Counted from the first letter of the stretch, positions 19,339 through 34,912 are shown. The stretch is DNA of 64,000 nucleotides from Arthrobacter sp. (GCA_026393275.1 JAPLAM010000017.1:20091-84090), one strand, 5' to 3'. Notes: generated by a model from the sequence alone, not told the origin. Program-made: numbers and translations.

Positions 19339-19438
19339 ACAGGATCGTCCAGCCATAAAAGCGCTGGGAAAGCTCGATATAGGAAGGGAAGCGCCTTTGG
19401 CACCTTGGCTTCGTCCAGTTGTAGCACACCCCAGCCTG

Positions 19439-19464
19439 TGTCGTTTTCAGAACTCGCATGCACC
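19439..19464. repeat. Left terminal inverted repeat of tni transposon
   Basis: TGTCGTTTTCAGAACTCGCATGCACC; resembles Tn402/Tn5053 ends (TGTC.TTTTCAGAAG.CG.CTGCAC). Confidence 0.9.
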
Positions 19465-19516
19465 ACTTCATGCGGAAGTATGGCCCGGGTGCACAGGACT
19501 GTTGACATCCGTTTGT

Positions 19517-19596
19517 CAGAAGTCACCTGCACTGTTGGCATTTCCATCAGAAGTCGCCTGCACTAGCCTGAATCATGGTCAACAGTCGTCTGCACC
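19517..19596. repeat. Internal left-end TniA-binding-type repeats
   Basis: CAGAAGTCACCTGCACT (19517-19533), CAGAAGTCGCCTGCACT (19548-19564), CAACAGTCGTCTGCACC (19580-19596). Confidence 0.85.
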
Positions 19597-19609
19597 GTCG
19601 GCGCCAGTC

Positions 19610-21283
19610 ATGACATCGGATGACCCCCAGATCTTGGAACGGGGTCTGGTGGGCATGTCGGATGAGGCGTGGGAGCGCCTGCGCCGGCAGGACGAGGTCA
19701 TTGCACCTTTGGCGGCCATGGTCACGGTCACCCACGGGGCGGCGGACAGCGCGGCCGAAGAGTTGGGATTGTCGAGACGGCAGGTCTACACCCTGATCGG
19801 CCGGCGCCGAAAGGGCACCGGTCTGCTGACGGACCTGGCCCCGGGCCGGTCCGCCGGCGGCCGGGGAGGCGGGCGCCTGCCGGAGCCTGTGGAGGCCGTA
19901 ATTCGTGAAGTCATCCGGAAGACTTACCTGACGAAGCAAAAGCCGTCCTTGGCGGTTGTGCATCGCCAAATTGTGCGCGAATGCAAGACGCTGGGGTTGG
20001 CCGCGCCGGCAAGGAATACTGTCGCCCACCGGATCGAGGCGCTGCATCCGGTGGAAGTCAGGCGCAGGCGTGAGGGCAGCGAGGCCGCCCGGGCCTTGCA
20101 GTCGGCCGGCGGAAAGGTTCCGGACATCGTGGCCCCGTTGGACCAGGTCCAGATCGACCACACCGTGATTGACCTGATCATCGTCGATGACCGGGACCGG
20201 CAGCCCATCGGCCGGCCCTACCTGACGGTTGCCATCGATGTTTATAGCCGGTGCCTGCTGGGAATGGTCGTGACCCTGGAGGCACCGTCTGCGGTGTCGG
20301 TGGGCCTGTGTATTGCGCACATGGCCTGCGACAAGCGGCCGTGGCTGGAAGCCCTGGGCGTGGACGCGGCGTGGCCGATGAGCGGCAAGCCCAAGGCGTT
20401 GTTCCTGGACAACGCTGCGGAGTTCAAGAGCGAGGCGTTGCGCCGCGGTTGCGAGCAGCACGGGATCAAACTCAGCTACCGGCCACTTGGGCGCCCGCAC
20501 TACGGCGGCATCGTGGAGCGGATCGTCGGCACGGTGATGCAGCGGGTCCATGAACTGCCCGGGACAACCTTCTCTAACCCGGGACAGCGGGGCGGTTACG
20601 ATGCCGACAGAATGGCCGCCCTGACGTTGACGGAGCTGGAACGCTGGCTGGCCTTAGCGGTCGCCGGCTACCACGGCAGTATTCACGGATCCCTGAACCA
20701 GACACCCGCCGGGCGCTGGGGAGAGGGCGTGAGAGAGTTCGGCGCGCAGCCTGTTGTTGCGCACCCCGCAGCGTTTCTCATCGATTTCCTGCCGGTCATC
20801 CGGCGCCGAATCACCCGCACCGGTTTCGTCATCGACCATGTCCATTACTTCGCGAACGTGCTCAAGCCATGGATCGCGCGGCGGGACGGGGAGGAAACGT
20901 TCATCATCCGGCGGGACCCGCGGGACATCAGCAGGGTCTGGGTGCTGGAACCGGAAGGGACGGCCTATGCGGAAGTCCCGTACCGCACGGTTTCTTACCC
21001 GGCGGTGACGTTGTGGGAACACCGGCAGGCGCTGGCGCGGCTCCGTCAGCAGGGACATGACCAGGTCAACGAGGAAGCATTGTTCCGCATGGTTGATCAG
21101 ATGCGTGAGATCACTTCAACGGCGCAACGGGCAACCCGCAGATCACGCCGGGAGCTGCAGCGGCGGCGCCACCTCCAGGCCTCCGGACCCGTGAAGAACC
21201 CGACGGCCCCACCTGATGAAATGCTCCCACCCACGAATGATGTGGCGCCAGCCCGTCCTTTTGACGAGGTCGAGCAGTGGTGA
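19610..21283 (+). CDS. tniA: TniA-type DDE transposase (Mu/TnsB superfamily)
   Basis: VAPLDQVQIDHTVIDLIIVDDRD...LTVAIDVYSRCLLGMVVTLE...ALFLDNAAEFKSEALRRGCEQHGIKLSYRPLGRPHYGGIVERIVGTV; ATG at 19610 lies inside the element after the end repeats. Confidence 0.93.
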   Translation: MTSDDPQILERGLVGMSDEAWERLRRQDEVIAPLAAMVTVTHGAADSAAEELGLSRRQVYTLIGRRRKGTGLLTDLAPGRSAGGRGGGRLPEPVEAVIREVIRKTYLTKQKPSLAVVHRQIVRECKTLGLAAPARNTVAHRIEALHPVEVRRRREGSEAARALQSAGGKVPDIVAPLDQVQIDHTVIDLIIVDDRDRQPIGRPYLTVAIDVYSRCLLGMVVTLEAPSAVSVGLCIAHMACDKRPWLEALGVDAAWPMSGKPKALFLDNAAEFKSEALRRGCEQHGIKLSYRPLGRPHYGGIVERIVGTVMQRVHELPGTTFSNPGQRGGYDADRMAALTLTELERWLALAVAGYHGSIHGSLNQTPAGRWGEGVREFGAQPVVAHPAAFLIDFLPVIRRRITRTGFVIDHVHYFANVLKPWIARRDGEETFIIRRDPRDISRVWVLEPEGTAYAEVPYRTVSYPAVTLWEHRQALARLRQQGHDQVNEEALFRMVDQMREITSTAQRATRRSRRELQRRRHLQASGPVKNPTAPPDEMLPPTNDVAPARPFDEVEQW

Positions 21284-22194
21284 ATATCGATGACTACCCG
21301 CCGCCGGATCTCTCCCATCTCCAGCCCTGGGCCCAAGCCATGGCTCGACTGCCGGCGGAGGAACGGATCCGGCGCATCCGGGCGGACCGCTGGATCGGCT
21401 ACCCCTTGGCGGTCCAGACGCTCACCAGGCTCGAAACACTCTATGACTGGCCCGGCAAACAGCGCATGCCCAACCTTCTGCTGATCGGACCGACCAACAA
21501 CGGCAAGTCCATGATCATCGAACGGTTCCGCCGGCAGCACCCGGCACACTCCACCGCGGATCAGGAACACATTCCCGTCCTGTGTGTCCAGATGCCCTCC
21601 GAACCGTCCATCCCGCGGTTCTACACGGCCGTCCTCGCCGCGCTCGGCGCGCCCACGGGACCGCGCCGGCGCGTAGCTGACCTGGAACAGCTCACCCTCG
21701 CCGTGCTGCGCCGCGTCGGTGTGCGGATCCTGGTGATTGACGAACTGCACAATGTGCTGGCCGGCCGCGCCGATGTCCGGCGCGAATTCCTGAACCTGCT
21801 GCGCTTCCTGGGAAACGAGCTGCGGATCCCGCTGGTGGGGGTCGGGACCCGGGAGGCCTATCTCGCCGTCCGCTCCGATGACCAGCTCGAAAACCGGTTT
21901 GAGCCCATGACCCTGCCCCTGTGGGAGGCCAACGCAGACCTGTCGTCCCTGCTGGCCAGCTTCGGCTCCTCCTTCCCGCTGCGCACTCGCTCGAATCTGG
22001 CGACCGATGACATGGCCCGCTACCTCCTGACCCGCAGCGAGGGCACCATCGGGGAGCTCACCTCGCTCCTGACCGAAGCCGCAGTAGCCGCCGTGGACAG
22101 CGGCGAAGAATCCATCAACCACCGGACGCTGACCCTGGCCGAATACGACGGTCCCAGCGTGCGGCGCCGGAAGTTCGAACGCGAACTCAGATGA
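21277..22194 (+). CDS. tniB: TniB AAA+ ATPase
   Basis: LLIGPTNNGKSMIIERF Walker A; VRILVIDELHNVLAG Walker B; overlaps tniA stop. Confidence 0.92.
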   Translation: MVNIDDYPPPDLSHLQPWAQAMARLPAEERIRRIRADRWIGYPLAVQTLTRLETLYDWPGKQRMPNLLLIGPTNNGKSMIIERFRRQHPAHSTADQEHIPVLCVQMPSEPSIPRFYTAVLAALGAPTGPRRRVADLEQLTLAVLRRVGVRILVIDELHNVLAGRADVRREFLNLLRFLGNELRIPLVGVGTREAYLAVRSDDQLENRFEPMTLPLWEANADLSSLLASFGSSFPLRTRSNLATDDMARYLLTRSEGTIGELTSLLTEAAVAAVDSGEESINHRTLTLAEYDGPSVRRRKFERELR

Positions 22195-23393
22195 GGCCGC
22201 CGGAACGCTGGCCTCTGCACCCGGCCCCTGCAGAAACGGAATCGTTGTCCTCCTGGCTCCGGCGGATCGCAGCCAGCTACGGGATGTACTCCTACGAGCT
22301 GCTCGAACACGGACTCGGCCACCGCGAACTCAGCGACCCCGAGCTGGATCTGAACCCTCCGATGCACCTGCTCGAAGAGCTCGCCAAGCGCACCGGTCTT
22401 GACCAACACCGCGTAAACGCCATGACCATGGCCGGCTGGGTGCCATGGCTCTTCGACGGACTCGCCCCTGCCCCCGACGCCTACGAAACCTATGCGCACC
22501 AGCTCTCGGTGCTCCTGCCGCCCAAGCGGCGCATTATCTATACTCCGCGGAAGTGGTTGCCATGGCTCCCGGACTCCGGGGCGCGGCGGGGATGCCCGGA
22601 CTGCCTGGAATCCGGCCCGACGCTACTGCTCTTCTGGCAATTGCCGCTCATGGCCAGCTGCCCGGTACATGGGCGCCGGCTTGAAACCTACGAAGGACAC
22701 CCTCCTGACTACGTTTTGTGGAAAACCCCAGCCCATGGCGAGCGGGGGCTTCCGGAGTCGTTGTCCCTCATGGACCGGCGGACCTGGCAGGCGATAACCA
22801 CCGGTTCCGTCAATCTGCCCCGGTATCCGGTTCACGCGGGCACCTGGTTCCGGCTGCTGCGGACCCTCCTGGACGAACTCACCACAGCCCAGGGACGATA
22901 TGGCCGACAACTGGACGACGTGCGTCGTGTCTGGGAACACTGCGGACACCCGTTCCGGGCCGGCCTGTATTCGTGGCAACCGTTCGAAACCCTCCATTGG
23001 CCGGTCCAGCAGCAGCTGCTCGAAGCAGCAGCCGCCGCAATGGAACTGATCGAAGCCGGCTCACTGGTTGCCTTGGGAACCTCCGCGCACCTCCTGCGCC
23101 CCGAACCGAACCCCCGGATCGGCGACGGAACCCGGCCCGGCCCACTGACAGCAACCGCCGCCGTTCAAGAGAAGCCCACTCTCGATGAGCTCTGGAAACA
23201 AGCAACGGACGCACTGGAAGTCTGCATCAAGGCAGCCAAAGAAGAGCCGGCCGTCGCGCAGCAGCTCTTCAACTTCGCACGCTACGGATGCCGGAGTGAA
23301 GAATCCGTGCGCGGTCTCCGGCAAACCTTCACCGAGCTTCAGATACCCCTCGACTTCCTGTCACACATTGATGAGCGGGGGCCCTTTGCCTGA
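22191..23393 (+). CDS. tniQ: TniQ family protein
   Basis: WPLHPAPAETESLSSWLRRIAASYGM...; RRGCPDCLESGP...LPLMASCPVHGRRL zinc-finger pattern; synteny. Confidence 0.9.
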   Translation: MRPPERWPLHPAPAETESLSSWLRRIAASYGMYSYELLEHGLGHRELSDPELDLNPPMHLLEELAKRTGLDQHRVNAMTMAGWVPWLFDGLAPAPDAYETYAHQLSVLLPPKRRIIYTPRKWLPWLPDSGARRGCPDCLESGPTLLLFWQLPLMASCPVHGRRLETYEGHPPDYVLWKTPAHGERGLPESLSLMDRRTWQAITTGSVNLPRYPVHAGTWFRLLRTLLDELTTAQGRYGRQLDDVRRVWEHCGHPFRAGLYSWQPFETLHWPVQQQLLEAAAAAMELIEAGSLVALGTSAHLLRPEPNPRIGDGTRPGPLTATAAVQEKPTLDELWKQATDALEVCIKAAKEEPAVAQQLFNFARYGCRSEESVRGLRQTFTELQIPLDFLSHIDERGPFA

Positions 23394-23413
23394 CATAGAA
23401 TAAATAACGGGTT

Positions 23414-23482
23414 TTGTGACATATTTCGATTCCGGTCGAATCCGGAATCACGTTGTCACTTAAACGAACGTATAAATGACAA
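23414..23482. promoter_or_regulatory. Putative res (resolution) site
   Basis: GTGACATATTTCGATTCCGG...CCGGAATCACGTTGTCAC...CGTATAAATGACAA: inverted GTGAC/GTCAC-type motifs between tniQ and tniR, the expected position of res in Tn402/Tn5053 elements. Confidence 0.65.
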
Positions 23483-23494
23483 GGGGTCTGGACC

Positions 23495-24106
23495 ATGCTG
23501 GTCGGATACATGCGGGTGTCCAAGGCGGACGGGTCGCAAAGCACTGATCTGCAGCGCGACGCGCTCCTGGTCGCGGGCGTCGACCCATTGAAACTTTACG
23601 AGGACCACTCCTCAGGCAAGAAGGACGACCGTCCTCAACTTGCAGCCTGCCTGAAGGGCATGAACGCCGGGGACACCCTTTTGGTGTGGAAGCTCGACCG
23701 GCTCGGCCGGGACCTGCGGCACCTGGTTAACATCGTCCATGACCTCACCGAACGCGGCATCGGGCTCAAGGTCCTCACCGGGCAGGGCGCTGCCATCGAC
23801 ACCACCACCGCCTCCGGAAAGCTCGTCTTCGGAATCTTCGCTGCCCTCGCCGAGTTCGAGCGCGAACTCATCTCCGAACGGACCATCGCAGGACTCGCCG
23901 CCGCCCGTGCCCGCGGCCGTAAGGGCGGCCGGCCCTACAAGATGACCCCCGCCAAACTCCGGCTCGCCATGGCCTCAATGGGAAAACTGGACACGAAAGT
24001 CAGCGAGCTCTGCACCGAACTCGGCATCACACGCCAAACCCTCTACCGACACGTCTCACCAACCGGCGAACTGCGCCCGGACGGGCAGAAGCTGCTGGCG
24101 CGCTAG
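23495..24106 (+). CDS. tniR: Serine recombinase (resolvase)
   Basis: MLVGYMRVSKADGSQSTDLQRDALLVAGVDP...DHSSGKKDDRPQL...LLVWKLDRLGRDLRHLV. Confidence 0.92.
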   Translation: MLVGYMRVSKADGSQSTDLQRDALLVAGVDPLKLYEDHSSGKKDDRPQLAACLKGMNAGDTLLVWKLDRLGRDLRHLVNIVHDLTERGIGLKVLTGQGAAIDTTTASGKLVFGIFAALAEFERELISERTIAGLAAARARGRKGGRPYKMTPAKLRLAMASMGKLDTKVSELCTELGITRQTLYRHVSPTGELRPDGQKLLAR

Positions 24107-24389
24107 CGCAGGTGGACGTCAACACTTTTCCCTGGCAGTCCACAATGCGATCGCGCCGAATAGAACGATTGGAGCCCTAATACCCACCAAGGCGACCCAG
24201 CCCTGGGGGCCGTAAATTGCTAGGCGGCTCCGCCGCAGAAACCGCTGATGATCAACGAACGCTCGAACGGTCTTATTGGATAAACCCTCCACAGTACGTC
24301 TGCGGTTCGGCCGGCAGGTCTCACCGTCACCCCCGGCGGCATCCTCAGATAGGGGCTCACAGGCTTGTGAAAAAGTGAAATATGCGACG

Positions 24390-24565
24390 CTAAGGTTTTG
24401 CCGGGCGTCGTAGTGGCCTGTATTTGGCGCGGGGCCAGATGTAGTCGCCGGTGAGGTTGATGTGTTCCCAGCCCAGCGGTGAAAGGAACCGCAGGAGGTC
24501 CGGGTCGATGTCACCGCTGTTGCTGGTCAGGGTGGCGACGGTGCGGTCGAGGTAGACCGATTGTG
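24390..24565 (-). pseudogene. Tn3-family TnpA C-terminal remnant
   Basis: SVYLDRTVATLTSNSGDIDPDLLRFLSPLGWEHINLTGDYIWPRAK, TnpA-like C-terminus; no N-terminal region. Confidence 0.75.
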
Positions 24566-24897
24566 TCAACTTGATTGGAGCCCACCGAGACGGCCCGACT
24601 GGTACCCAGGTGCGGCCTTGATGCGGTCCAGAAAGCAGGGCCAAGGACGTTGCGACAGTCTTCCGTCGGGTGGCAGCTGCTCGTGGCGCTCAGCGATTAA
24701 TTGGTAGGAGTTAGCGTGTAGCGAGAAAAGCGCTGGCGTAGACGGGCAGGAAGGCCGACCACAGCCCAGCCCCAGTCCTCGGAGGTTGGTTCAGTTTTTG
24801 CAGAAGCTGTGCCTGATGCCTCCGTGCTTAGCCGCGAGCGGTGTCCCGCCTTGGAACACCGCCCGCAGGCTTATCCGCTCAGTATGGTTCGCCCAGA

Positions 24898-25149
24898 CTA
24901 AGCCCTCGACTTAGCCGACGCTCGCCGTGAGGCGATGGACAGGCTGATTCCGGCGGCAGCGGCTATTACCGCGCCGACGAAGGACCAAACAATCACTTCC
25001 ATAGGCCAGGACGGCCCTTGCGATGGATCAAGTCGGGAGGTGTTTATCCCAAACACTTGCGAGCCGATCCAGATGTAGGCAACCACAAGGAGCATGATTG
25101 CGCCTAACACTCCGGCGACTATGAAAAGTACCTTCGCAGCCTTGGACAT
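24898..25149 (-). CDS. Small two-TM membrane protein (possible partner of the upstream secreted protein)
   Basis: MSKAAKVLFIVAGVLGAIMLLVVAYIWIG...VIVWSFVGAVIAAAAGISLSIA; 31 bp downstream of the secreted-protein gene. Confidence 0.6.
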   Translation of the reverse strand: MSKAAKVLFIVAGVLGAIMLLVVAYIWIGSQVFGINTSRLDPSQGPSWPMEVIVWSFVGAVIAAAAGISLSIASRRASAKSRA

Positions 25150-25180
25150 TTTCGCAACTCCTGCTTACTCTTGATCCTGC

Positions 25181-26122
25181 TTAGGGGTTACAACGGTACG
25201 TCAGGTTCAACTGGTCGCCCCAGTACATCCACGGTCGCCATGACTCGAGGTTGTAGGTGCCGGGTTCGAAGACATTGCCCACTACGTGACACAGGTATTG
25301 CTCCTGGATTGTACCCGTGAGGTTCCAACCAATTCGACCCAATTTGGTGCGCAACTCGTCCACGTGTGCGTTGTGGGTTGCGAATCCGTTGTAGAACCGC
25401 CCCCAGCCCGTTGGGTTGAGATTTACCACTCCTCCTTGTGAAGCGTAGGTGATCCACGGGAGTCCGTCGATCAGGTCCACGCCAGCCCAGGGGTCTGCCA
25501 CCACCGGATACTTGACGGTTGGGGAGGAATGGTCGACGACCTGTACGAGTTGCCGTCCCTGGACTTCGTAGTGAGTAGGCAGAGCGACGCCAGCCGCATC
25601 TTTTGCCCATGGCTTGGCAAAGCCACCGAAGAACGTACCATCCGCTCTCGAGATCGCAACGCTTCCATCCTCATTCGGCTTCATCGCGGCTCCCGCGGGT
25701 ATGTCGACTCGATACTGGTATCGGGAGGGCGCTGCCGACGATTCGATAATTGTGTGAATGGCGACGGAATTGTCGTCCTGTGGGATGGGGACCGTAGCTG
25801 AGCCGTTGCCATTGTCGTAGGACACTACCCCGTTTCCAATGGGTCGCGCTGTCGCCGACTTCTCTGCAAAGGGAAGCCCGATCGAAAGGGACTGGCCCTT
25901 CTGGCCAGTTATCTTCACAACACCCGACGAATCGGTCGGCACCTCCACCTTCTTATCGCGAATGCCCTGTTTGCCAAGGGACTGGACGTTTGGAGAAACA
26001 GCTGCAATAGCCCTAAGAGCGTTGTCGTCGGGAGCGGCGCCGGCCGGTCCGGCTTGCCCGAGCAACAGCGCGAAGCCTATGGCTCCAACGGTCAGTGACG
26101 TGATTTTCCTTCGTAATGTCAT
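25181..26122 (-). CDS. Secreted protein, DUF2599-like C-terminus
   Basis: Signal peptide MTLRRKITSLTVGAIGFALLLGQAGPAGA preceded by GGGGG; C-terminal VVNLNPTGWGRFYNG...DELRTKLGRIG...IQEQYLCHVVGNVFEPGTYNLESWRPWMYW. Confidence 0.6.
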   Translation of the reverse strand: MTLRRKITSLTVGAIGFALLLGQAGPAGAAPDDNALRAIAAVSPNVQSLGKQGIRDKKVEVPTDSSGVVKITGQKGQSLSIGLPFAEKSATARPIGNGVVSYDNGNGSATVPIPQDDNSVAIHTIIESSAAPSRYQYRVDIPAGAAMKPNEDGSVAISRADGTFFGGFAKPWAKDAAGVALPTHYEVQGRQLVQVVDHSSPTVKYPVVADPWAGVDLIDGLPWITYASQGGVVNLNPTGWGRFYNGFATHNAHVDELRTKLGRIGWNLTGTIQEQYLCHVVGNVFEPGTYNLESWRPWMYWGDQLNLTYRCNP

Positions 26123-26977
26123 AGTTCCCCCAATTGAACTCGGCACCCCCTGTGCCGAGTCGAGTCACCATAACATGTTTGTTTGACGAGGACTTGTCAC
26201 ACCGAATGGCCGTCTCAGATCTGCTGGATTTCCGGTTCAGACGAGTCATTTTTAGGACCGGAATTCCTTCGCCGGAACTTGCAGTCCGCCTATTCTGGTT
26301 CGTCCTCAGCAAGTTCGTGACTTATTAGCGGTCTATCAGTTCGATCTAAGGCTGTGTGCAAGTCGGTAGGAGTCTGTGCCGGTTTCGATGATAGTGCCGT
26401 TGAACGTGAGCAGGTCCACGCGCCCGTAGCGGAAGATAGTCTTAGGCAGCATCTTTTCGTCGGCGGCTTCGACGAGTTCGTTCACGGGAATCATTCTTTG
26501 GTGAAGTTCCGGGATCTCACCTGCCAAGCACAAACTGTCCAGATTGCAAGTCGGTGGATGCCCATTTTTGCGGAAAACCGCGCTAGCGTCGGAAATTTAA
26601 CTTTTTCACAAACCACCCCAGATAGCGGCCCTATCCGGAAAGCACTTCCGTTTGCAACTAGCACCACACTCCCTCCGGCAGGCTCTGGCCGGACTCGTGA
26701 CCGGCGGCTGACACTTCCCGGGGCCGGGGCATCTCAAGTGTCAATGCCGCTTCGAAAACACGGGAACCGTTCAGCCGGCCATCAACGGCGTCTTTACGCC
26801 CCCAACATGAGCGAGGGCCGTTAGCGCCGGATCCTGTTCCATTGTTCGTGACGGGCCGGATCCGAGAGAATCTTGGGCTGGGCCACGTGAAGCTGTAAAA
26901 GGCGTCAGCTTACTGCGCACGAGATGACACAGCAGGCGCCGCATCGCGCGTTTCAACTGCGCTTCCTCCTTAGTCAT

Positions 26978-27166
26978 CTACCCTTTTCGTAGGTAGCCCA
27001 GCACCATCGGCACTATGATGGCAACGCCCAGTATCACGGGAATTAGATGGATTACTGGCCCTGTCTGCGGAAGCATCATTCGCACTATGACGGCACAAAC
27101 GACGCTAGCCAGGAATATTAGGCCTGTTGCAGCAGCTAACTTGCGAAGTCCTTGGGCTCGGGGCAT
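26978..27166 (-). CDS. 62-aa two-TM protein, candidate immunity protein for the RHS toxin
   Basis: MPRAQGLRKLAAATGLIFLASVVCAVIVRMMLPQTGPVIHLIPVILGVAIIVPMVLGYLRKG; Shine-Dalgarno GAAAGG; 46 bp downstream of the RHS gene stop. Confidence 0.6.
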   Translation of the reverse strand: MPRAQGLRKLAAATGLIFLASVVCAVIVRMMLPQTGPVIHLIPVILGVAIIVPMVLGYLRKG

Positions 27167-27212
27167 CTCGTACCTTTCAGTGCAGCGGAATCGTTCACGG
27201 ATCAGCCTTGTT

Positions 27213-30200
27213 TCAGGTAATCGCGTTTCGAATGATCGGGCCCAACCCAGCGGTGAGACCGCCCAGGCAACTCGCGCCGATACTGGATGCAGAGGTGCTT
27301 GATCCGTCAAAGGCGTTCGCTGAACCAACGCCAACGGCAGCAGTTGTGCAACCTCCCACCGCCGTCCCTATTGCGATCCCACCCAAAGGTGAGGTGAACG
27401 GTGTGACGGCCACACCGACAATGATGCCAAAAGTAGCCCCCACGAGCGCACCGACCACTGCGCCGAATATGGTGCCGCCCTCGGACGCGAGTCCGGTGGA
27501 ATCTGTTGCGTTGATGGGGTTACAGCCTGCGTAAAGGTACCTGTTGGCTTCCTGTCCGGAGGGGTCGGGTTGCGTGAAGCGGCCGCGGTAGGGGTTGTAG
27601 TAGCGGGCGCCGAATTTGATGCGGTTGCTGGCGGTGTCGTTGTAGCCGCCGGCGTAGGTCCAGGGGTTGGTGGCTGCCTGGGCGCCGGTGCTGGTGGTTT
27701 GGCCCCAGGAGTCGTAGGCGTAGGTCGCAGCCGGGGCCTGTGCGCTGTCGGTGAGCAGGATGGTCGAGCCGAGCCCGTCCATCGTGTAGTAGTAGCTGGC
27801 CCCGGTGCTGGTGCGCATGCTGATGAGGGTACCGCCCGGGTCCCGGATAAACGAGGTGCTGGCGCCGGCCGTGGTTTGGCGGCTGATGCCGAGGGAGCCG
27901 TTGAGGAACGCGGTGGCTCCGGCGGTGAGGCGTTCATCGTTCCGCGGCCCGCTGTAGGTGTAGTTGGCCGTCACTCCGCCGCTGGTGTTGGAGGTGAACT
28001 GGTCGAAGACGTTGTAGGCCTGCGTGGTGGCCCCGGCGGCGGTGGTGTTGCCGTTGGAGTCGTAGGCGTACGTGGTCGCCCCGGACGGTGGTGCGGCGCA
28101 GGTGCCGGCGCTGGCTCCGGACCAGCAGAGCTGGTCGGCGGCGTTGTAGGCGTTGTAGACGTTGCCGGTGCCGGTCTTGGTGTCCAGGGTCCGGTTGCCG
28201 TTCTTGTCGTAGGCCCAGGTCTCGGTCGTGGCCCCGGTGATAGCGGAGGTGAGCCGGTTGACCGGGTCGTAGCCGTAGGTAGTGACAGCGCCTGCCTGGT
28301 CGGTGACGGTTTTGCGCAGTGCCCCGTCCTTGGTGCCGTTAGCGGTAAAGGTGTAGGCCCGTTTGGTCAGGACCGTGCCACCGGTGGTGGTCGCGGTGAT
28401 GGACGTAGTCCTGCCGGCCCCGTCGTAGACGGTGGTGTTCTTCACCCCGTTGGGGTAGCTGGTCGTGGCGCGGCGGTCAGCGTTGTCGTAGCCGAAACCG
28501 GTGCACCGGGTGCTGTTCGGAAACACGGGTGTGGCCGGGCAAGACCCGCCGGGTTCGGCCAGGGTGACGAGCCGGTTCGCTGCGTCATAGCCGTAGGTCA
28601 CGGTCCCGCCCGGGTCGGTGAAGCCGGTGACGTTCGACGCCGCATCATAGGTGACCGTGGTCGTGACCCCGCCGGTGGTTTTGGACTTGGGACGGTTCTG
28701 CGCGTCGTAGGTGAAGTCGGTGTTCCCGGTATCGTCCTGGCTCCGGGTCAGGTTCCCGCGGGTGTCGTAGGCGTAGGAGACGCACTTGCTGGCGCAGTTG
28801 ACGCCCTTGTCGATCTGGATGAGCCGGTCATTGTCGTCGTAGTCGTACTGGGTGACCTGGCCCTTGCCGTCGGTGGAGGTGATGAGCCGGGAGGCGTCGT
28901 CGTACACGTTCGTCACAGCCCCCAGCGGGGCCGGGTAGGTGATTTTGGTCGGCATGCCCAGGGCGCCGTAGGTGTAGCTGGTGACGTTGCCGTTGCCGTC
29001 GGTGGACTTACAGACCTGTCCCTTCTTCGCCCCGCAGCTGGACCCGGCTGCGTCGCCCTGGTAGTTCAGTTTCGGTGTCCCGCCGGCGCCTCCTCCTGCC
29101 CCGGGGGTGGTGGTCATCGACCGGTTGTTGGTGTTGGCGTCGTAGCTGTACCCGGTGGTCTGGTTCTCACTGTTCACCGAGGAGGTGGGCTGGTAGTTCG
29201 AGAGCGGGTTCCCGGTGTTGGACGGATACGCGAACGTCGTTTCGGCCCCGGCGGCCCCGCCGGCGGGGTTGGTGACCTTCGTCAGGGAGTTGTTCGCGTT
29301 GTACGCGTAGGTCGTGGAATTGCCCAGCCCGTTCAACGAGGTGAGCCGGTTGTCGTGGGCGTCGAAGGTCCCTTGGGTGGTGTGGCCGAGCGCGTCGCTG
29401 ATCTTCGTGACCTGGCCCGAAGAGTTGTACTCATAGCTCGTGGCGTGGTTCAGCGGATCCGTCCCCTTCGAGACGGTTGCGGACGGGTAGCTGTAGCCGT
29501 AGATGCTCTGGACCGGCTTGCCGGTGGCGTAGGTCGCCTGCGTGAGTTTTTTCGAGGTGCTGTCATAGCCCAGGGTGGTGACGGTACCGGCGTCGTCGGT
29601 GACGGTGGTGAGCCGGTTACTCGGGGCCCCGTAGCCGAAGGACATGACCTCCCCGGCGGCGTCGCTGATCTCGGACATCGCACCGCCCGGCCCGAAATAC
29701 TCGAAATAGATGTCCCGGGACAACGCATCATCGTGGATCTGCGAGGGCTGCTCCGGGTTGTTCGCATCGTTGTAGGAGAAGGTGACCGGCCGGCCGCCGA
29801 TGGTGTCGTTGATCGTGGTGAGCCGCCCGGCGGCGTTGTAGGTGTAGGTGATCCTGTTCGGCGCCGTCGGGTTCTGATCATTCTGGTATGCGAGCCGGAA
29901 CGTCGAGCCGGCGAGCTGGTATTCGTTGCTGAAGCCGGTGTCGTTGAAGCGGATCGTCACCGCCGTCGAGGAGAACGTGGTGATGGTCGCATTCAGGCCG
30001 CGGGGCATCGTCCACGCCCCGGCTCCTGCGGGAACGAACTTGTAAGCGCCGCCGTCCGGGGCGATGTAGGTGACCGAGTTATCGGTGCCGACCGTGACAG
30101 CAGATTCCGCGGTTCCCACCGACAGTGTGGGCCTGGCGTCGTTGAACGAGTTGTACCGCCAGCCGATGCCAAGGTCCACTCCGGCGCCTTTGACGTGCAG

Positions 30201-30542
30201 CAACTGACCGGCCAGAACCACGTTGCCGTTCGTCGGGTTCCACGAGACAGTCGTCCGGTCCGTGAGGTGCCGGGTAACCATCGATGCCGCGGACCGGTTA
30301 CCCGACTTACTCGCATCTGGCCCGGAGGCCGGTGGCAGCACCATCGGCGACATCCCCAGAGCGGGTAACGCGGCCGTCTGGCCCGTCCGGAAAGGGGCTC
30401 GATGCTCTAACGAGGACGGTGCGCGGCCCGGCGGCTTCACCGTCGCCGGTGCGGCAACGGCCGCGCCCGCCGGCACAGTCACACCGCTGAGAACCACGGC
30501 GGAAAGAACAAGACCTGACAGAAGAGACCGTAAAGCAGCCAT
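27213..30542 (-). CDS. Secreted RHS/YD-repeat protein with hydrophobic glycine-rich C-terminal tip (polymorphic toxin-like)
   Basis: Signal peptide, many YD repeats (YGYDAANRLVTLA, YDAQNRPKS), core end NRIKFGARYYNPYRGRFTQPDPSGQEANRYLYAGCNPINATDSTG, then GTIFGAVVGALVGATFGIIVGVAVTPF tail. Confidence 0.9.
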   Translation of the reverse strand: MAALRSLLSGLVLSAVVLSGVTVPAGAAVAAPATVKPPGRAPSSLEHRAPFRTGQTAALPALGMSPMVLPPASGPDASKSGNRSAASMVTRHLTDRTTVSWNPTNGNVVLAGQLLHVKGAGVDLGIGWRYNSFNDARPTLSVGTAESAVTVGTDNSVTYIAPDGGAYKFVPAGAGAWTMPRGLNATITTFSSTAVTIRFNDTGFSNEYQLAGSTFRLAYQNDQNPTAPNRITYTYNAAGRLTTINDTIGGRPVTFSYNDANNPEQPSQIHDDALSRDIYFEYFGPGGAMSEISDAAGEVMSFGYGAPSNRLTTVTDDAGTVTTLGYDSTSKKLTQATYATGKPVQSIYGYSYPSATVSKGTDPLNHATSYEYNSSGQVTKISDALGHTTQGTFDAHDNRLTSLNGLGNSTTYAYNANNSLTKVTNPAGGAAGAETTFAYPSNTGNPLSNYQPTSSVNSENQTTGYSYDANTNNRSMTTTPGAGGGAGGTPKLNYQGDAAGSSCGAKKGQVCKSTDGNGNVTSYTYGALGMPTKITYPAPLGAVTNVYDDASRLITSTDGKGQVTQYDYDDNDRLIQIDKGVNCASKCVSYAYDTRGNLTRSQDDTGNTDFTYDAQNRPKSKTTGGVTTTVTYDAASNVTGFTDPGGTVTYGYDAANRLVTLAEPGGSCPATPVFPNSTRCTGFGYDNADRRATTSYPNGVKNTTVYDGAGRTTSITATTTGGTVLTKRAYTFTANGTKDGALRKTVTDQAGAVTTYGYDPVNRLTSAITGATTETWAYDKNGNRTLDTKTGTGNVYNAYNAADQLCWSGASAGTCAAPPSGATTYAYDSNGNTTAAGATTQAYNVFDQFTSNTSGGVTANYTYSGPRNDERLTAGATAFLNGSLGISRQTTAGASTSFIRDPGGTLISMRTSTGASYYYTMDGLGSTILLTDSAQAPAATYAYDSWGQTTSTGAQAATNPWTYAGGYNDTASNRIKFGARYYNPYRGRFTQPDPSGQEANRYLYAGCNPINATDSTGLASEGGTIFGAVVGALVGATFGIIVGVAVTPFTSPLGGIAIGTAVGGCTTAAVGVGSANAFDGSSTSASSIGASCLGGLTAGLGPIIRNAIT

Positions 30543-30782
30543 GCTGCGCCCCCAATATGATGTGCTCCCCAGTGAGCATCCTTGCGCTCCCCAGTGAGCA
30601 CAGGATGATCATCAGCGACAACACTCTCAAATTGCAATACACGAACCCCAGAATTTTTCCAAACCAGTGAAAAACCCGGCCGTCCTGCTTCACCGGCGAC
30701 CCCGCCGTCTCCTGATCGGGGCAGTGCGCGGCTGCGCGGCGATTGACTCCTCCCGACACCCGGAAGGGCCTCTCAACCCCTA

Positions 30783-30830
30783 GCGCAGAACACTTCTGAC
30801 ATTCAGTGCAGACGACTGCTGAAAATGACA
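30783..30830. repeat. Right terminal inverted repeat plus one inner TniA-site-like repeat
   Basis: Reverse complement reads TGTCATTTTCAGCAGTCGTCTGCACTGAATGTCAGAAGTGTTCTGCGC. Confidence 0.9.
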
Positions 30831-31099
30831 GCCTGACGTCAGAAACGTCCTTGGAAGGTCGTCAGGTTAGGGTTCAGATCCGGTATTCATTGACACCCAT
30901 CGGCAGAAGTCCTAAATCCCAACCTGACACATCGAAGTGGAGGCTCCCATGGTTGGTCAGAGGATCGGGTAAGTGCGCGTCAGCGGCCTAGACTAGAACG
31001 AAAGACGCCAACTCTATAGCGCGGCTCTGGACCGTTTTCATCGGGAAGATCTCCGGCCGGGACGCGAACCGCCCCGAGTTGACCGAACTGCGCGGCGCA

Positions 31100-31458: not shown

Positions 31459-32349
31459 GTGCTGGTTTCTATCAAAGGGGGCGATGTGACCGAGACAAAC
31501 TGGATATCTGTGACGCAGCTGATGGTGAACATCGTCCTTGGCACCGTGACCATAGCGTTGTTCATCCAAGGTCAGCGGGACCGTCGGCGGGTGCAGGACG
31601 ACCGCAGGAGAGAACAAGCCTCGAAAATTAGCCTGCTCCGTCACGAAAAATCCGAACGGACTCGCACTGAAAGCCCAGCATTTGCAGAGTCCTGGACCAT
31701 CCTCGGGACGAATGTCACCGTTCACAATGACTCGGATCTTCCCATCACCCAAGTAATGGTTCGGCCGCTTCACCGTTCGCAATGGCTACAACACTCTGAT
31801 CCTTTTGCACGGCGAACAGATTACTTAAGCGAGCAAGTACGATTTCCCCAGTCAGTCCAACAACCATTCGGGTTGAGCATCCTTCCCGCGGAGGCTTTGG
31901 TCTATGACGGCGAATACTTACCCTCGTCAGATCTGGTCCTAAGTTTTACAGACGGGGCAGGCGTCACCTGGGTCAAAACAACTTTCGACGGGCAGCTTTG
32001 GCGAGCGATACCACGACCGGTTACTCTGCGATCCAAGTTGACCCAATGGATCCAGAGGACACGGTGGCTTGGATGGCTCGCATGGATCGTTCACACAGCT
32101 CCTTACAGACACGCCACCCTGCGTTTCAGACAGACCAAATCAGGCATCCCCTGGTCAGCACGCTGGGTGAGGTTTACCTGGGGTTCCTGCCCCATCGGAG
32201 AACCCGAGCCTTGGGACTTACCCATAGGTGCCCCCGCCAATGAGTGGCCGTATGACGCGTGGATCGATGTCGCCCGGAGAAGCGAGCAGCGCCGGCGTCG
32301 AGGTCCATGCGGTATTCGCAGAGCCACCGGAGGATGGACGTACGTCTGA
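31459..32349 (+). CDS. Hypothetical protein with N-terminal TM segment
   Basis: LMVNIVLGTVTIALFIQGQRDRRRVQDDRRREQ; 296-aa ORF; stop overlaps next start (TGATGA). Confidence 0.6.
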   Translation: MLVSIKGGDVTETNWISVTQLMVNIVLGTVTIALFIQGQRDRRRVQDDRRREQASKISLLRHEKSERTRTESPAFAESWTILGTNVTVHNDSDLPITQVMVRPLHRSQWLQHSDPFARRTDYLSEQVRFPQSVQQPFGLSILPAEALVYDGEYLPSSDLVLSFTDGAGVTWVKTTFDGQLWRAIPRPVTLRSKLTQWIQRTRWLGWLAWIVHTAPYRHATLRFRQTKSGIPWSARWVRFTWGSCPIGEPEPWDLPIGAPANEWPYDAWIDVARRSEQRRRRGPCGIRRATGGWTYV

Positions 32350-33271
32350 TGAACGACGAACATAAACCCAAAATTGTAGACCAACACTTTGTTTCGCGTG
32401 TCCTTCTCTCGCGCTTTTCAAAAGATCCAAGCCAAAAAAACGGGCTCGTAGGTCAGTTCGATGTCGTCAACGGGAAAGAACTCCCGGCACGTTCACCCAG
32501 GGCGATAGGCTTCGAGAATACTTCATCAAATATGACGGTGACCGGATGGAAGAGCTTTGGGGAAAATACGAAACCCCCATGAAGCCAGTATTCAATGCCC
32601 TGGATAACGGCATGCCCGATCTACTTCAGACAAAGAGAACCGAAATCACAAACTTCGTCGCCTTGCATTTCGCCAGAAGTATCGAAGTTCAGAGGATCCA
32701 CGTGGAGTCCCTTTCCAGAGTCGAACGACAAACGCGGGCGAACAGCGAGATGCAGACCCGGCTAGCAACCGCCAAATACGGACTCGACTTATCCAAGGCC
32801 CCGTCAATCCTGACTGAGATTGCCGAAGAGATACTTGCTCCCATCCGAACTATGGAGGAGCAAGGATTACTGTTTCAAGATTGGATCGAAGGCGTTTTCG
32901 AGCGGACACGCCAACACCTCTCCCAGTACAGCTTGTCCATTCGACCGGCAACCCCAAGCCGCGAGTTCCTTCTGGGAGATTGCCCCGCTGTGGGTGTAGC
33001 GCCGGGGATGGACCCAAGGAAACGTCCCCCACTGTTGGATGCGAGGATCCTTATCCTTCCGCTGAACCCCCGATTCGCGGCCATGCTATATCCACCGGGG
33101 CCAGGGGATCCCATGTTTTCCGTAGATCCAGCAGGAGATGACGTCGTCACTCCGATAAATCACGGTCAGATCGCCCAGGCTCACAGAAGGGTCTACTACC
33201 GCCCAGACAACGGTCACGCTTCGACGGTGCGCGGCTATCTCGGCTTTTCTGACCTGGAACCAATGCCTTGA
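32349..33271 (+). pseudogene. DUF4238-like protein, split by a frameshift near 32515
   Basis: MNDEHKPKIVDQHFVSRVLLSRFS (frame of ORF 32259) continues as YFIKYDGDRMEELWGKYETPMKPVFNAL (frame of ORF 32546). Confidence 0.6.
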
Positions 33272-33273
33272 AT

Positions 33274-33640
33274 GTCAGCTCCTTGGTACAGTGCCCGCGT
33301 CATGTACGTCTCCGGCATCTTCCTCCAGCCCGAACTCCGGGGTGCCAAGCCCGGCCGCACAGTGATTGATGCGATCCTGCGCACCATCGGCCGCGCCTGC
33401 CCACTCGTCATCCTGCAGGCCGTGCCGGTCTCAAAGAGGAAGATGCCGAAGGCACCCCTCAGTGCCTTGACGCGAAGGGCGGGCTGATCAGGTGCTGGCA
33501 GAGCTACGGTTTCATGCCGGCCGCAGGCGACTACTTAGCCTTCGGCGGATTCATCCTGTCGGAGCCGGCCGCAGGCGACTACTTAGCCTTCGGCGGATTC
33601 ATCCTGTCGGAGCCGGCCACGACGCTGCCGGCCGTTTGAT
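33274..33640 (+). pseudogene. GNAT acetyltransferase-like remnant
   Basis: YVSGIFLQPELRGAKPGRTVIDAILRTIGRACPLVILQAVP, frameshift, then CWQSYGFMPAAGDYLAFGGF. Confidence 0.5.
33516..33611. repeat. Perfect 48-bp tandem duplication (2 copies)
   Basis: GCCGGCCGCAGGCGACTACTTAGCCTTCGGCGGATTCATCCTGTCGGA twice in a row. Confidence 0.97.
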
Positions 33641-33702: not shown

Positions 33703-34912
33703 TCATGCCGCCGTCCGGGCGACACTTCTCATGAGGATAATCGATTTGTAGTTCCCGGCGTTCCGATAGCCGCGGGCGGTGCGTTTGATGTGCTTGATGC
33801 CGGTGTTGTTTGCCTCGACCTTGGCCGTCGTGGCGCCGGTGACGATGAGGACCTCGATCTCGTTCCACCACCGGCATATCGTGCGGTAGAGCTTGTTTGT
33901 TTCCGGCCCTCCGGCCGCTTCCACGAGCGCCTTGAGGTCCTCTTTCGCGGCTGCCGCGTCGGCCAAGGAGTCGGTGCGCAGCAGCGCCCTGAGCTGTTCT
34001 TTGACTTTCCACACGGCCCGCAGCTTGCCGGTCGCGTCGTCGGTGGCGAAGACCTCCTCCAGCCGGTGGGCTGCCTTGTCGGAGAGTGTGTTGCCGGCGC
34101 GCAGGAGCAGCATGCGGTGGGCCCAGGCCTTGTCCACGCCGCGGCCGCGGCGGCCCTTGACCTGCTGGGACAGGTTCTGGCGGGCCTCGGTCATGGCCTG
34201 GTTGCCGAGGGAGACAAGATGGAAGTGATCGACCGCGACAGCGGTGCGGGGCAGCCACATCCTCAACGCTTTCCGGAACGCCGCCGACGGGTCGATCGCG
34301 ACGACCTGCACTCCCAGCCGCCAGGCCAGCGGGCGGGCGAAGAGCCAGTCGCCGACGCCCTTGTGGTCCCGGCCGTCGACCACGCCTAGGACCTGGCCGG
34401 TGTCCAGATCAACGATGGTTGTCATCCACGGTTCATGCCGGATCCACGTGCTCGACTCAGGGTCCCGGAAGAATCGCACGGATCGGAACCGGTGTTCATC
34501 GATGCCCAGCATCCGCGGCCTGAGCTCATCCACATCGGGCAGGGTCAGTAGGCAGGCTTCGGTCAGCGCGGCGCGGACCATCCACCAGGACACCGCGAAT
34601 GCAGCGGCGGTCTCCGACACTGCACGGCCGGAGCTGATGACCGCATCAACGACGTGGTCCCGGAGCCGGCCCGTGGACCGGGCACGGCGCGGGACCTGGG
34701 CAGTGGATTCGAAGAACGACAGCCGGGAACAGTTCTGTCCTCGCAGTACCAGCGGTACTTGGACCAGAGGACCTCCACGGCGCCGGCGACGGGAATGTCC
34801 CAATCACCCGGTGCCTGCCGTCGTCCAAAACGGTCGCGGAGATGACACGGTAGTCAGGCAGATTGAAGATGCTGGTGGCAGCGTCCGACGCCACAACGAT
34901 AGGCTCAGTCAA
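33703..34912 (-). pseudogene. ISL3-family transposase, N-terminal part broken into three frames
   Basis: Intact core ORF 33703..34803 (FFESTAQVPRRARSTGRLRDHVVDAVISSGRAVSETAAAFAVSWW...GIKHIKRTARGYRNAGNYKSIILMRS); N-terminus NLPDYRVISATVLDDGRHRVI and VEVLWSKYRWYCEDRT lie in other frames. Confidence 0.8.

What the first reader, a model, noticed from the sequence alone, without database searches (positions are those of the whole stretch)
27213..30542. RHS-repeat polymorphic-toxin-like protein as the cargo of a tni transposon
The 1,109-aa gene has a signal peptide, many YD repeats, the RHS core end motif and then a short variable tip (about 90 aa) rich in GxxxG glycine-zipper patterns (GAVVGALVGATFGIIVG). 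That tip suggests a membrane-active toxin (inference). A mobile element moving an interbacterial competition module would be an unusual cargo for this transposon family.
Basis: partly seen in the sequence, partly recalled or inferred. Interest (0 to 1): 0.82.

Follow-up and report, generated by a model that had tools for sequence, protein, structure and literature searches.

The report
Transposon-borne membrane-tipped RHS toxin and immunity
A jumping DNA element in a soil actinobacterium carries what looks like a bacterial weapon: a large secreted RHS protein ending in a short membrane-inserting tip, with a tiny membrane protein beside it that probably protects the owner; such tip and protector pairs turn out to be common in its relatives, but as cargo of this kind of transposon I found only this one.

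Summary
The 1,109-aa RHS gene (27213-30542, minus strand) lies inside a Tn5053/Tn402-like transposon whose ends I fixed: 19439-30830 (11,392 bp), 25-bp inverted tips found nowhere else in the 3.96-Mb genome, flanked by the 5-bp duplication GCCTG and a broken resolvase gene. In 80 RHS genes from 293 genomes of the family, 24 of 30 short tips (<=125 aa) have a <=100-aa, >=2-TM ORF next door, against 0 of 50 long tips; outside the family 6/17 against 0/41. Tip and neighbour similarity covary independently of the RHS core. An orphan copy of tip plus neighbour exists in the same genus. Best reading: a Sec-exported, WapA-like RHS toxin with a glycine-zipper membrane tip that depolarises target cells, countered by a 2-TM immunity protein (works like Tse5/Tsi5; toxicity untested). 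A nested Tn3-family element (24352-26619) adds a second secreted-protein/2-TM pair (DUF2599). None of 24 related TniA loci carries RHS. New variant of a known kind, with unusual cargo.

The parts
19439..30830 (.). Tn5053/Tn402-like (tni) transposon, 11,392 bp
   Evidence: Inverted tips TGTCGTTTTCAGAACTCGCATGCAC / TGTCATTTTCAGCAGTCGTCTGCAC; pattern occurs exactly twice in the genome, once per strand
19434..19438 (.). target-site duplication GCCTG, left
30831..30835 (.). target-site duplication GCCTG, right
19439..19463 (+). 25-bp left terminal inverted repeat; further 19-bp TniA-site-like repeats at 19516, 19547, 19579
30806..30830 (-). 25-bp right terminal inverted repeat; further repeat at 30781
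19610..21283 (+). tniA, DDE transposase (557 aa from ATG 19610)
   Evidence: PF09299 E 2e-9, rve; 57-82% identical homologues
21277..22194 (+). tniB, AAA ATPase
   Evidence: PF05621 E 4e-76
22191..23393 (+). tniQ
   Evidence: PF06527 E 3e-21
23495..24106 (+). tniR, serine resolvase
   Evidence: PF00239 E 5e-44
27213..30542 (-). RHS polymorphic toxin gene, 1,109 aa
   Evidence: PF05593, TIGR03696; Foldseek to Rhs shells incl. Tse5, Tse15, RhsA, RhsP
30459..30542 (-). predicted Sec signal peptide (about residues 1-28)
   Evidence: read by eye
27489..27716 (-). RHS-associated core (residues 943-1018) with Asp993/Asp1014 and expected autocleavage after Leu1018
   Evidence: TIGR03696; D993, D1014, G1017 invariant in 25 RHS proteins; inferred from Tse5 D1141/D1164 and L1168 (PMC10684867)
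27216..27488 (-). variable tip, 91 aa, glycine-zipper, two conserved Cys (class II tip)
   Evidence: low-confidence three-helix model, pLDDT 63
26978..27166 (-). 62-aa two-TM protein, candidate immunity; GAAAGG ribosome-binding site just before the ATG
   Evidence: homologue behind the same tip class in L075, z 7.8
24352..26619 (.). nested Tn3-family-like non-autonomous element, 5-bp TSD AGATA
   Evidence: inverted GGGG...TTGTGAAAAAGT ends, AGATA on both sides
24390..24644 (-). C-terminal remnant of a Tn3-family TnpA
   Evidence: PF01526 E 2.7e-8, profile end 347-389/389
25181..26146 (-). secreted DUF2599 protein, 'YPVVADPW' polymorphic family; candidate second toxin
   Evidence: PF10783 E 3e-6; swapped C-termini in relatives
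24898..25149 (-). 83-aa two-TM protein, candidate partner/immunity of the DUF2599 protein
   Evidence: homologue behind DUF2599 in L257, z 8.1
30949..31050 (+). start of a broken resolvase gene just outside the right end (res-site-hunter target; outside the element)
   Evidence: 70-72% identical to plasmid recombinase genes

Best explanation
The transposon carries an antibacterial toxin-immunity pair. The RHS protein is exported by its signal peptide (inferred), and its YD repeats fold into the hollow Rhs shell (homology shown). The Asp993/Asp1014 site in the core is expected to cut after Leu1018 and free the 91-aa tip inside the shell (inferred from Tse5 and relatives). On contact with a related cell the tip inserts into the cytoplasmic membrane as glycine-zipper-packed helices and probably dissipates the membrane potential (inferred). 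The 62-aa two-TM protein encoded directly downstream sits in the producer's own membrane and blocks its cognate tip (inferred from pairing and covariation). Tip plus immunity is a cassette that is exchanged between RHS backbones and here travels on a res-site-hunting tni transposon.
For: Conserved RHS body with tips that diverge abruptly after the core. Tandem displaced RHS-core/tip cassettes on pYA7-1b, with short 2-TM ORFs between them. 24/30 short tips against 0/50 long tips have a <=100-aa >=2-TM ORF next door, p 4e-15; with only the longest ORF taken, 20/30 against 0/50; control slots elsewhere 16/282. Replicate outside the family, 6/17 against 0/41, p 3e-4; all nine hydrophobic short tips have a TM neighbour, none of eight soluble ones. 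Tip similarity predicts neighbour similarity, Mantel r 0.53, 0.52 with core removed, p 2e-4; 0.28, p 3e-4 after dereplication. Orphan 59%-identical tip with a homologous 2-TM ORF in the same genus. RHS shell matches solved Rhs effectors including Tse5. Precedent: Tse5 forms pores and its immunity Tsi5 has two TM regions (PMC9637101); CDI ionophores have two-helix-hairpin immunity proteins and a putative glycine zipper (PMC11630599).
Against: No toxicity, pore activity or protection was tested. The tip model is low confidence (pLDDT 63) and no family matches it. Asp1014 is followed by S rather than the near-invariant P (DSTGL instead of DPxGL), so cleavage might be impaired. IMM62 is only weakly similar to most neighbours of related tips (z 3-4). 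TM counts rest on a hydropathy window. How a Gram-positive RHS tip reaches a target membrane through the cell wall is unknown.
Confidence: 0.68

Rival explanations
1. The tip is membrane-targeted but not a pore: like a class II bacteriocin or an inhibitor peptide it binds a membrane protein of the target (transporter, ATP synthase, cell-wall enzyme), and the 2-TM protein shields that target.
For: Class II tips are small, Gly-rich and keep two Cys that could form a disulfide after export; CDI ionophores need membrane receptors to enter (PMC11630599).
Against: No similarity to bacteriocin families in Pfam; nothing points to a particular target.
Confidence: 0.18
2. The tip is the remnant of a longer variable region: the hydrophobic stretch is only a translocation or linker segment and the catalytic toxin domain has been lost.
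For: Long tips in the same genomes (134-614 aa) often contain one or two hydrophobic segments; DSTGL departs from the core consensus.
Against: Homologous tips in at least six other loci end at about the same point (90-96 aa) and are followed by their own 2-TM gene; 30 of 80 RHS genes have tips of 47-123 aa.
Confidence: 0.06
3. The tip is an ordinary C-terminal anchor and the 2-TM protein helps to assemble or display the RHS protein, with no role in killing.
For: Both are membrane proteins next to a secreted protein; no enzymatic domain.
Against: An anchor should be conserved with its backbone; instead the tips switch while the RHS proteins stay at 52-59% identity, sit in displaced arrays, occur without any RHS backbone (L075), and covary with the neighbour rather than the core.
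Confidence: 0.06
4. The RHS gene is a chromosomal gene that merely lies near the tni genes.
For: On P. ureafaciens pA an RHS gene lies beside, not inside, a small tni element.
Against: Here the RHS gene lies between inverted 25-bp tips with an identical 5-bp duplication outside both; the tips occur nowhere else in the genome.
Confidence: 0.02

Closest known systems
Tse5/Tsi5 of Pseudomonas aeruginosa (Rhs pore-forming effector; PMC9637101, PMC10684867)
   Same: Rhs shell, Asp pair before the cleavage site, short membrane-active C-terminal fragment, two-TM immunity protein from the adjacent gene
   Different: Tse5 has a PAAR-like N-terminus and is delivered by a type VI system; this protein has a signal peptide and is from a Gram-positive. 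I did not compare the two tips directly; the window tip has no Pfam match
WapA-type RHS toxins of Gram-positive bacteria (B. subtilis, S. suis; PMC12704120)
   Same: Sec export, RHS repeats, variable C-terminal toxin, adjacent immunity gene
   Different: The cited B. subtilis WapA tips are tRNases; WapA carries wall-binding domains not seen here, and the protein here is about 110 kDa rather than over 300 kDa
CDI type 10 ionophores / CdiI (PMC11630599) and W-TIP pore tips (PMC3482391)
   Same: Polymorphic membrane-depolarising or pore-like tips; immunity as a two-helix hairpin (CdiI); putative glycine zipper in CDI group 1
   Different: Proteobacterial; CDI domains are five-helix bundles with a separate entry domain, W-TIP has RxxR and Wx[ST]IP motifs absent here
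Tn5053/Tn402 family, 'res site hunters' (PMC7765201)
   Same: tniABQ-tniR order, 25-bp inverted ends, 5-bp duplication, insertion next to a resolvase gene
   Different: Best-known members carry mer operons or integrons; here the cargo is toxin/immunity-like, plus a nested Tn3-family element

Membership tests
RHS polymorphic toxins | YD/RHS repeats forming a shell | tested here: met
   PF05593 E 6e-60; Foldseek E down to 9e-44 to Rhs shells (model pTM 0.63, shell well predicted, tip not)
RHS polymorphic toxins | RHS-associated core with Asp pair before the tip | tested here: met
   TIGR03696 full length; D993 and D1014 invariant; the P of DPxGL is S here
RHS polymorphic toxins | C-terminal tip that varies while the body is conserved | tested here: met
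RHS polymorphic toxins | adjacent immunity gene, cognate to the tip | tested here: met
   2-TM ORF adjacent, pairing and covariation; protection itself not tested
RHS polymorphic toxins | toxicity of the tip | not testable with these tools
   needs expression
Tse5/Tsi5-like pore-forming Rhs effectors | tip homologous to Tse5-CT | not tested
   No Pfam match for the tip; Tse5 shell entry 8cp6 matched in the body only
Tse5/Tsi5-like pore-forming Rhs effectors | two-TM immunity protein | tested here: met
   62 aa, two hydropathy peaks
Tse5/Tsi5-like pore-forming Rhs effectors | pore formation / depolarisation | not testable with these tools
   needs an assay
CDI type 10 ionophores | five-helix bundle with entry domain | tested here: inconclusive
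   three-helix model of pLDDT 63 from two sequences
Tn5053/Tn402 family | tniA-tniB-tniQ-tniR in this order | tested here: met
Tn5053/Tn402 family | 25-bp terminal inverted repeats and 5-bp target duplication | tested here: met
Tn5053/Tn402 family | insertion at a res site beside a resolvase gene | tested here: met
   broken resolvase start about 119 bp outside the right end, 70-72% identical to plasmid recombinase genes; the res site itself was not identified
Tn5053/Tn402 family | transposition activity | not testable with these tools
   needs a mating-out or similar assay

The most novel reading that the evidence does not exclude
Actinobacteria of this order possess a large, undescribed class of RHS toxins with tiny membrane tips and matched two-TM immunity proteins, and a second polymorphic secreted family (conserved ~180-aa part ending 'YPVVADPW', swapped C-termini such as DUF2599, often with 2-TM neighbours). 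Here two different transposon types, a tni element and a nested Tn3-family element, each brought one such pair, giving a transposon devoted to interbacterial competition.
Probability: 0.5. Interest if true: 0.75.

Novelty: new variant of a known kind. Interest (0 to 1): 0.62.

Why it matters
The best-known Rhs and CDI membrane toxins come from Gram-negative bacteria. If short hydrophobic RHS tips with two-TM immunity proteins are a common class in soil actinobacteria, then membrane depolarisation by Sec-exported RHS proteins becomes a testable mechanism in Gram-positives, with dozens of natural tip/immunity pairs ready for assay. A tni transposon that carries a weapon together with its antidote also shows how such pairs move between lineages, and the antidote would reward a new host for keeping the element.

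Tried and rejected
Pfam on tips and 2-TM ORFs: no convincing family. PADLOC: nothing for the RHS, the DUF2599 protein or two neighbouring genes. A genome-contig scan with the RHS alignment used generic YD patterns and returned mostly distant RHS genes; useful only for L091 and as alignment depth. Near-identical copies of the transposon on plasmids: none, best listed 24% coverage. RHS in other tni elements: none in 24 TniA loci; ten ORFs downstream of the tni genes in four of these loci matched mostly metabolic enzymes, one transporter and one cupin protein, and one had no hit. The pA plasmid RHS beside a mini-tni element was considered as a second case and rejected because the RHS gene lies outside its ends. 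Fold search with the tip model was not run because of its low confidence. An empty insertion site was not searched. The <=125-aa limit for short tips was set after seeing the first table, so the order-level set was run with the limit fixed.

Full report
What is there. The ORF 27213-30542 (-) encodes 1,109 aa with ten RHS repeat stretches, a full RHS-associated core at residues 943-1018 and a 91-aa tip. It is the only RHS gene in the 3.96-Mb genome. The host belongs to Micrococcaceae by inference: the nearest named relatives are Paenarthrobacter and Arthrobacter plasmid genes, and contig G027:C5 of the same family group has the length and the tip of the named Paenarthrobacter contig L091.

The transposon. 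tniA, tniB, tniQ and a resolvase gene lie at 19610-24106. The ends are TGTCGTTTTCAGAACTCGCATGCAC at 19439 and, inverted, TGTCATTTTCAGCAGTCGTCTGCAC at 30830; the 5 bp outside both are GCCTG. Their common pattern occurs exactly twice in the genome, once on each strand, at these two places; the reversed control pattern never occurs. Further 19-bp copies of the presumed transposase site follow inside both ends. Just outside the right end a resolvase gene begins (MVGQRIG*VRVSGLD*NERRQ, broken by stops), 70-72% identical to Arthrobacter plasmid recombinase genes. This is the target habit of Tn5053-type res site hunters (PMC7765201). The RHS start codon is 288 bp inside the right end, so the gene is cargo.

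A nested element. Inside the tni element, 24352-26619 is bounded by inverted GGGG...TTGTGAAAAAGT...CGACGCTA ends and flanked on both sides by AGATA; the ends differ by a few bases in spacing, so this boundary is a little less certain than that of the tni element. It holds the last part of a Tn3-family transposase (PF01526), a secreted DUF2599 protein and an 83-aa two-TM ORF. Two same-genus genomes hold a homologous pair in the same order (z 8.1).

The immunity candidate. A 62-aa ORF with two hydrophobic segments starts 46 bp after the RHS stop, behind a GAAAGG ribosome-binding site. In the same genus, L075 has a 59%-identical tip with no RHS backbone in front of it (a stop separates it), followed by a two-TM ORF homologous to the 62-aa protein (z 7.8). 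This is what a mobile tip/immunity cassette should look like. On Arthrobacter plasmid pYA7-1b the RHS gene is followed by a tandem array of displaced core-tip cassettes with small two-TM ORFs between them.

Survey. In 293 genomes of the family I took 80 RHS core ends, best core matches first and regardless of tip. Thirty tips are 47-123 aa, fifty are 134-614 aa. A <=100-aa ORF with at least two TM segments adjoins 24 of the 30 short tips and none of the 50 long ones (p 4e-15); with the longest adjacent ORF only, 20/30 against 0/50; in control positions nearby the rate is 16/282. The length limit was chosen after seeing these data, so I repeated the count, limit fixed, on 58 core ends from other families of the order: 6/17 against 0/41 (p 3e-4). 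There all nine hydrophobic short tips have a TM neighbour and none of the eight soluble short tips has; that refinement is post hoc. By inspection the short tips form three groups: 47-72 aa hydrophobic with Cys near both ends; 80-96 aa Gly-rich with two Cys (the window's group); and 100-123 aa Gly/Ser-rich with several Cys.

Covariation. Among 32 pairs, tip similarity correlates with neighbour similarity (Mantel r 0.53, p 2e-4) and the correlation is unchanged when core similarity is removed (0.52), while tip and core hardly correlate (0.17). After dropping near-duplicates r is 0.28, p 3e-4. So the neighbours are matched to tips, not merely to RHS backbones.

Mechanism. The shell is homologous to solved Rhs effectors, in which an Asp pair in the C-terminal plug cuts off the toxin (Tse5 D1141/D1164, cut after L1168; PMC10684867). 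Asp993 and Asp1014 are invariant in 25 aligned RHS proteins, so cleavage after Leu1018 is expected, with the caveat DSTGL for DPxGL. The tip has six glycines in one GxxxG register and models as three helices at low confidence. Tse5-CT depolarises cells and its immunity protein has two TM regions; CDI ionophores pair with two-helix-hairpin immunity proteins. By analogy the tip inserts in the target membrane and dissipates its potential. Insertion, killing and protection are inferred, none is shown.

Cargo in context. TniA relatives occur in 28 of 293 family genomes. None of 24 loci fetched around them has an RHS gene in up to 20 kb (several are cut short by contig ends), and in the listed matches no other genome has both on one contig within 20 kb. 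Other cargo-side ORFs sampled are mostly metabolic enzymes. A survey of 6,549 Tn7-like transposons, which includes the Tn5053 clade, does not use the words Rhs, polymorphic toxin or bacteriocin. No open-access paper in the library holds Rhs, Arthrobacter and polymorphic toxin together; most subscription papers were not searchable.

Verdict. The finding stands and is stronger than first stated: a precisely bounded tni transposon carries an RHS toxin with a membrane tip and its likely immunity gene, plus a nested element with a second pair of the same style. It is a new variant of known kinds; the delivery of membrane tips by Gram-positive RHS proteins is the open question it makes testable.

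Noticed in passing
25181-26146 and L260-L288: The DUF2599 protein belongs to a second polymorphic secreted family: a conserved part ending 'YPVVADPW' followed by different C-terminal domains (DUF2599-like about 100 aa, a 47-aa WLAPW type, 93-aa FGCGVPW type, others) and a small, often two-TM, next gene; 58 of 293 family genomes have a match.
   Followed up: partly
24352-26619: Nested non-autonomous Tn3-family-like element with AGATA duplication carrying the DUF2599/83-aa pair.
   Followed up: partly
L175, L197, L216-L218, L226: A third class of short RHS tips, 106-123 aa, Gly/Ser-rich with several Cys and little hydrophobicity, is also followed by two-TM ORFs; possibly beta-rich membrane toxins.
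   Followed up: no
L009:6925-11700: On P. ureafaciens plasmid pA a 4.8-kb tniABQ element with intact tips lies beside, not around, an RHS gene.
   Followed up: partly
L075:714-1265, L077:5546-6094, L088:13504-14064: Serine resolvase genes lie near several RHS or orphan-tip loci; whether res sites attract these cassettes was not tested.
   Followed up: no
33703-34803: ISL3-family transposase gene, with a short tandem duplication at about 33515-33620.
   Followed up: no
32259-33271: A DUF4238 gene appears split into two overlapping frames (32259-32582 and 32546-33271), possibly a frameshift.
   Followed up: no
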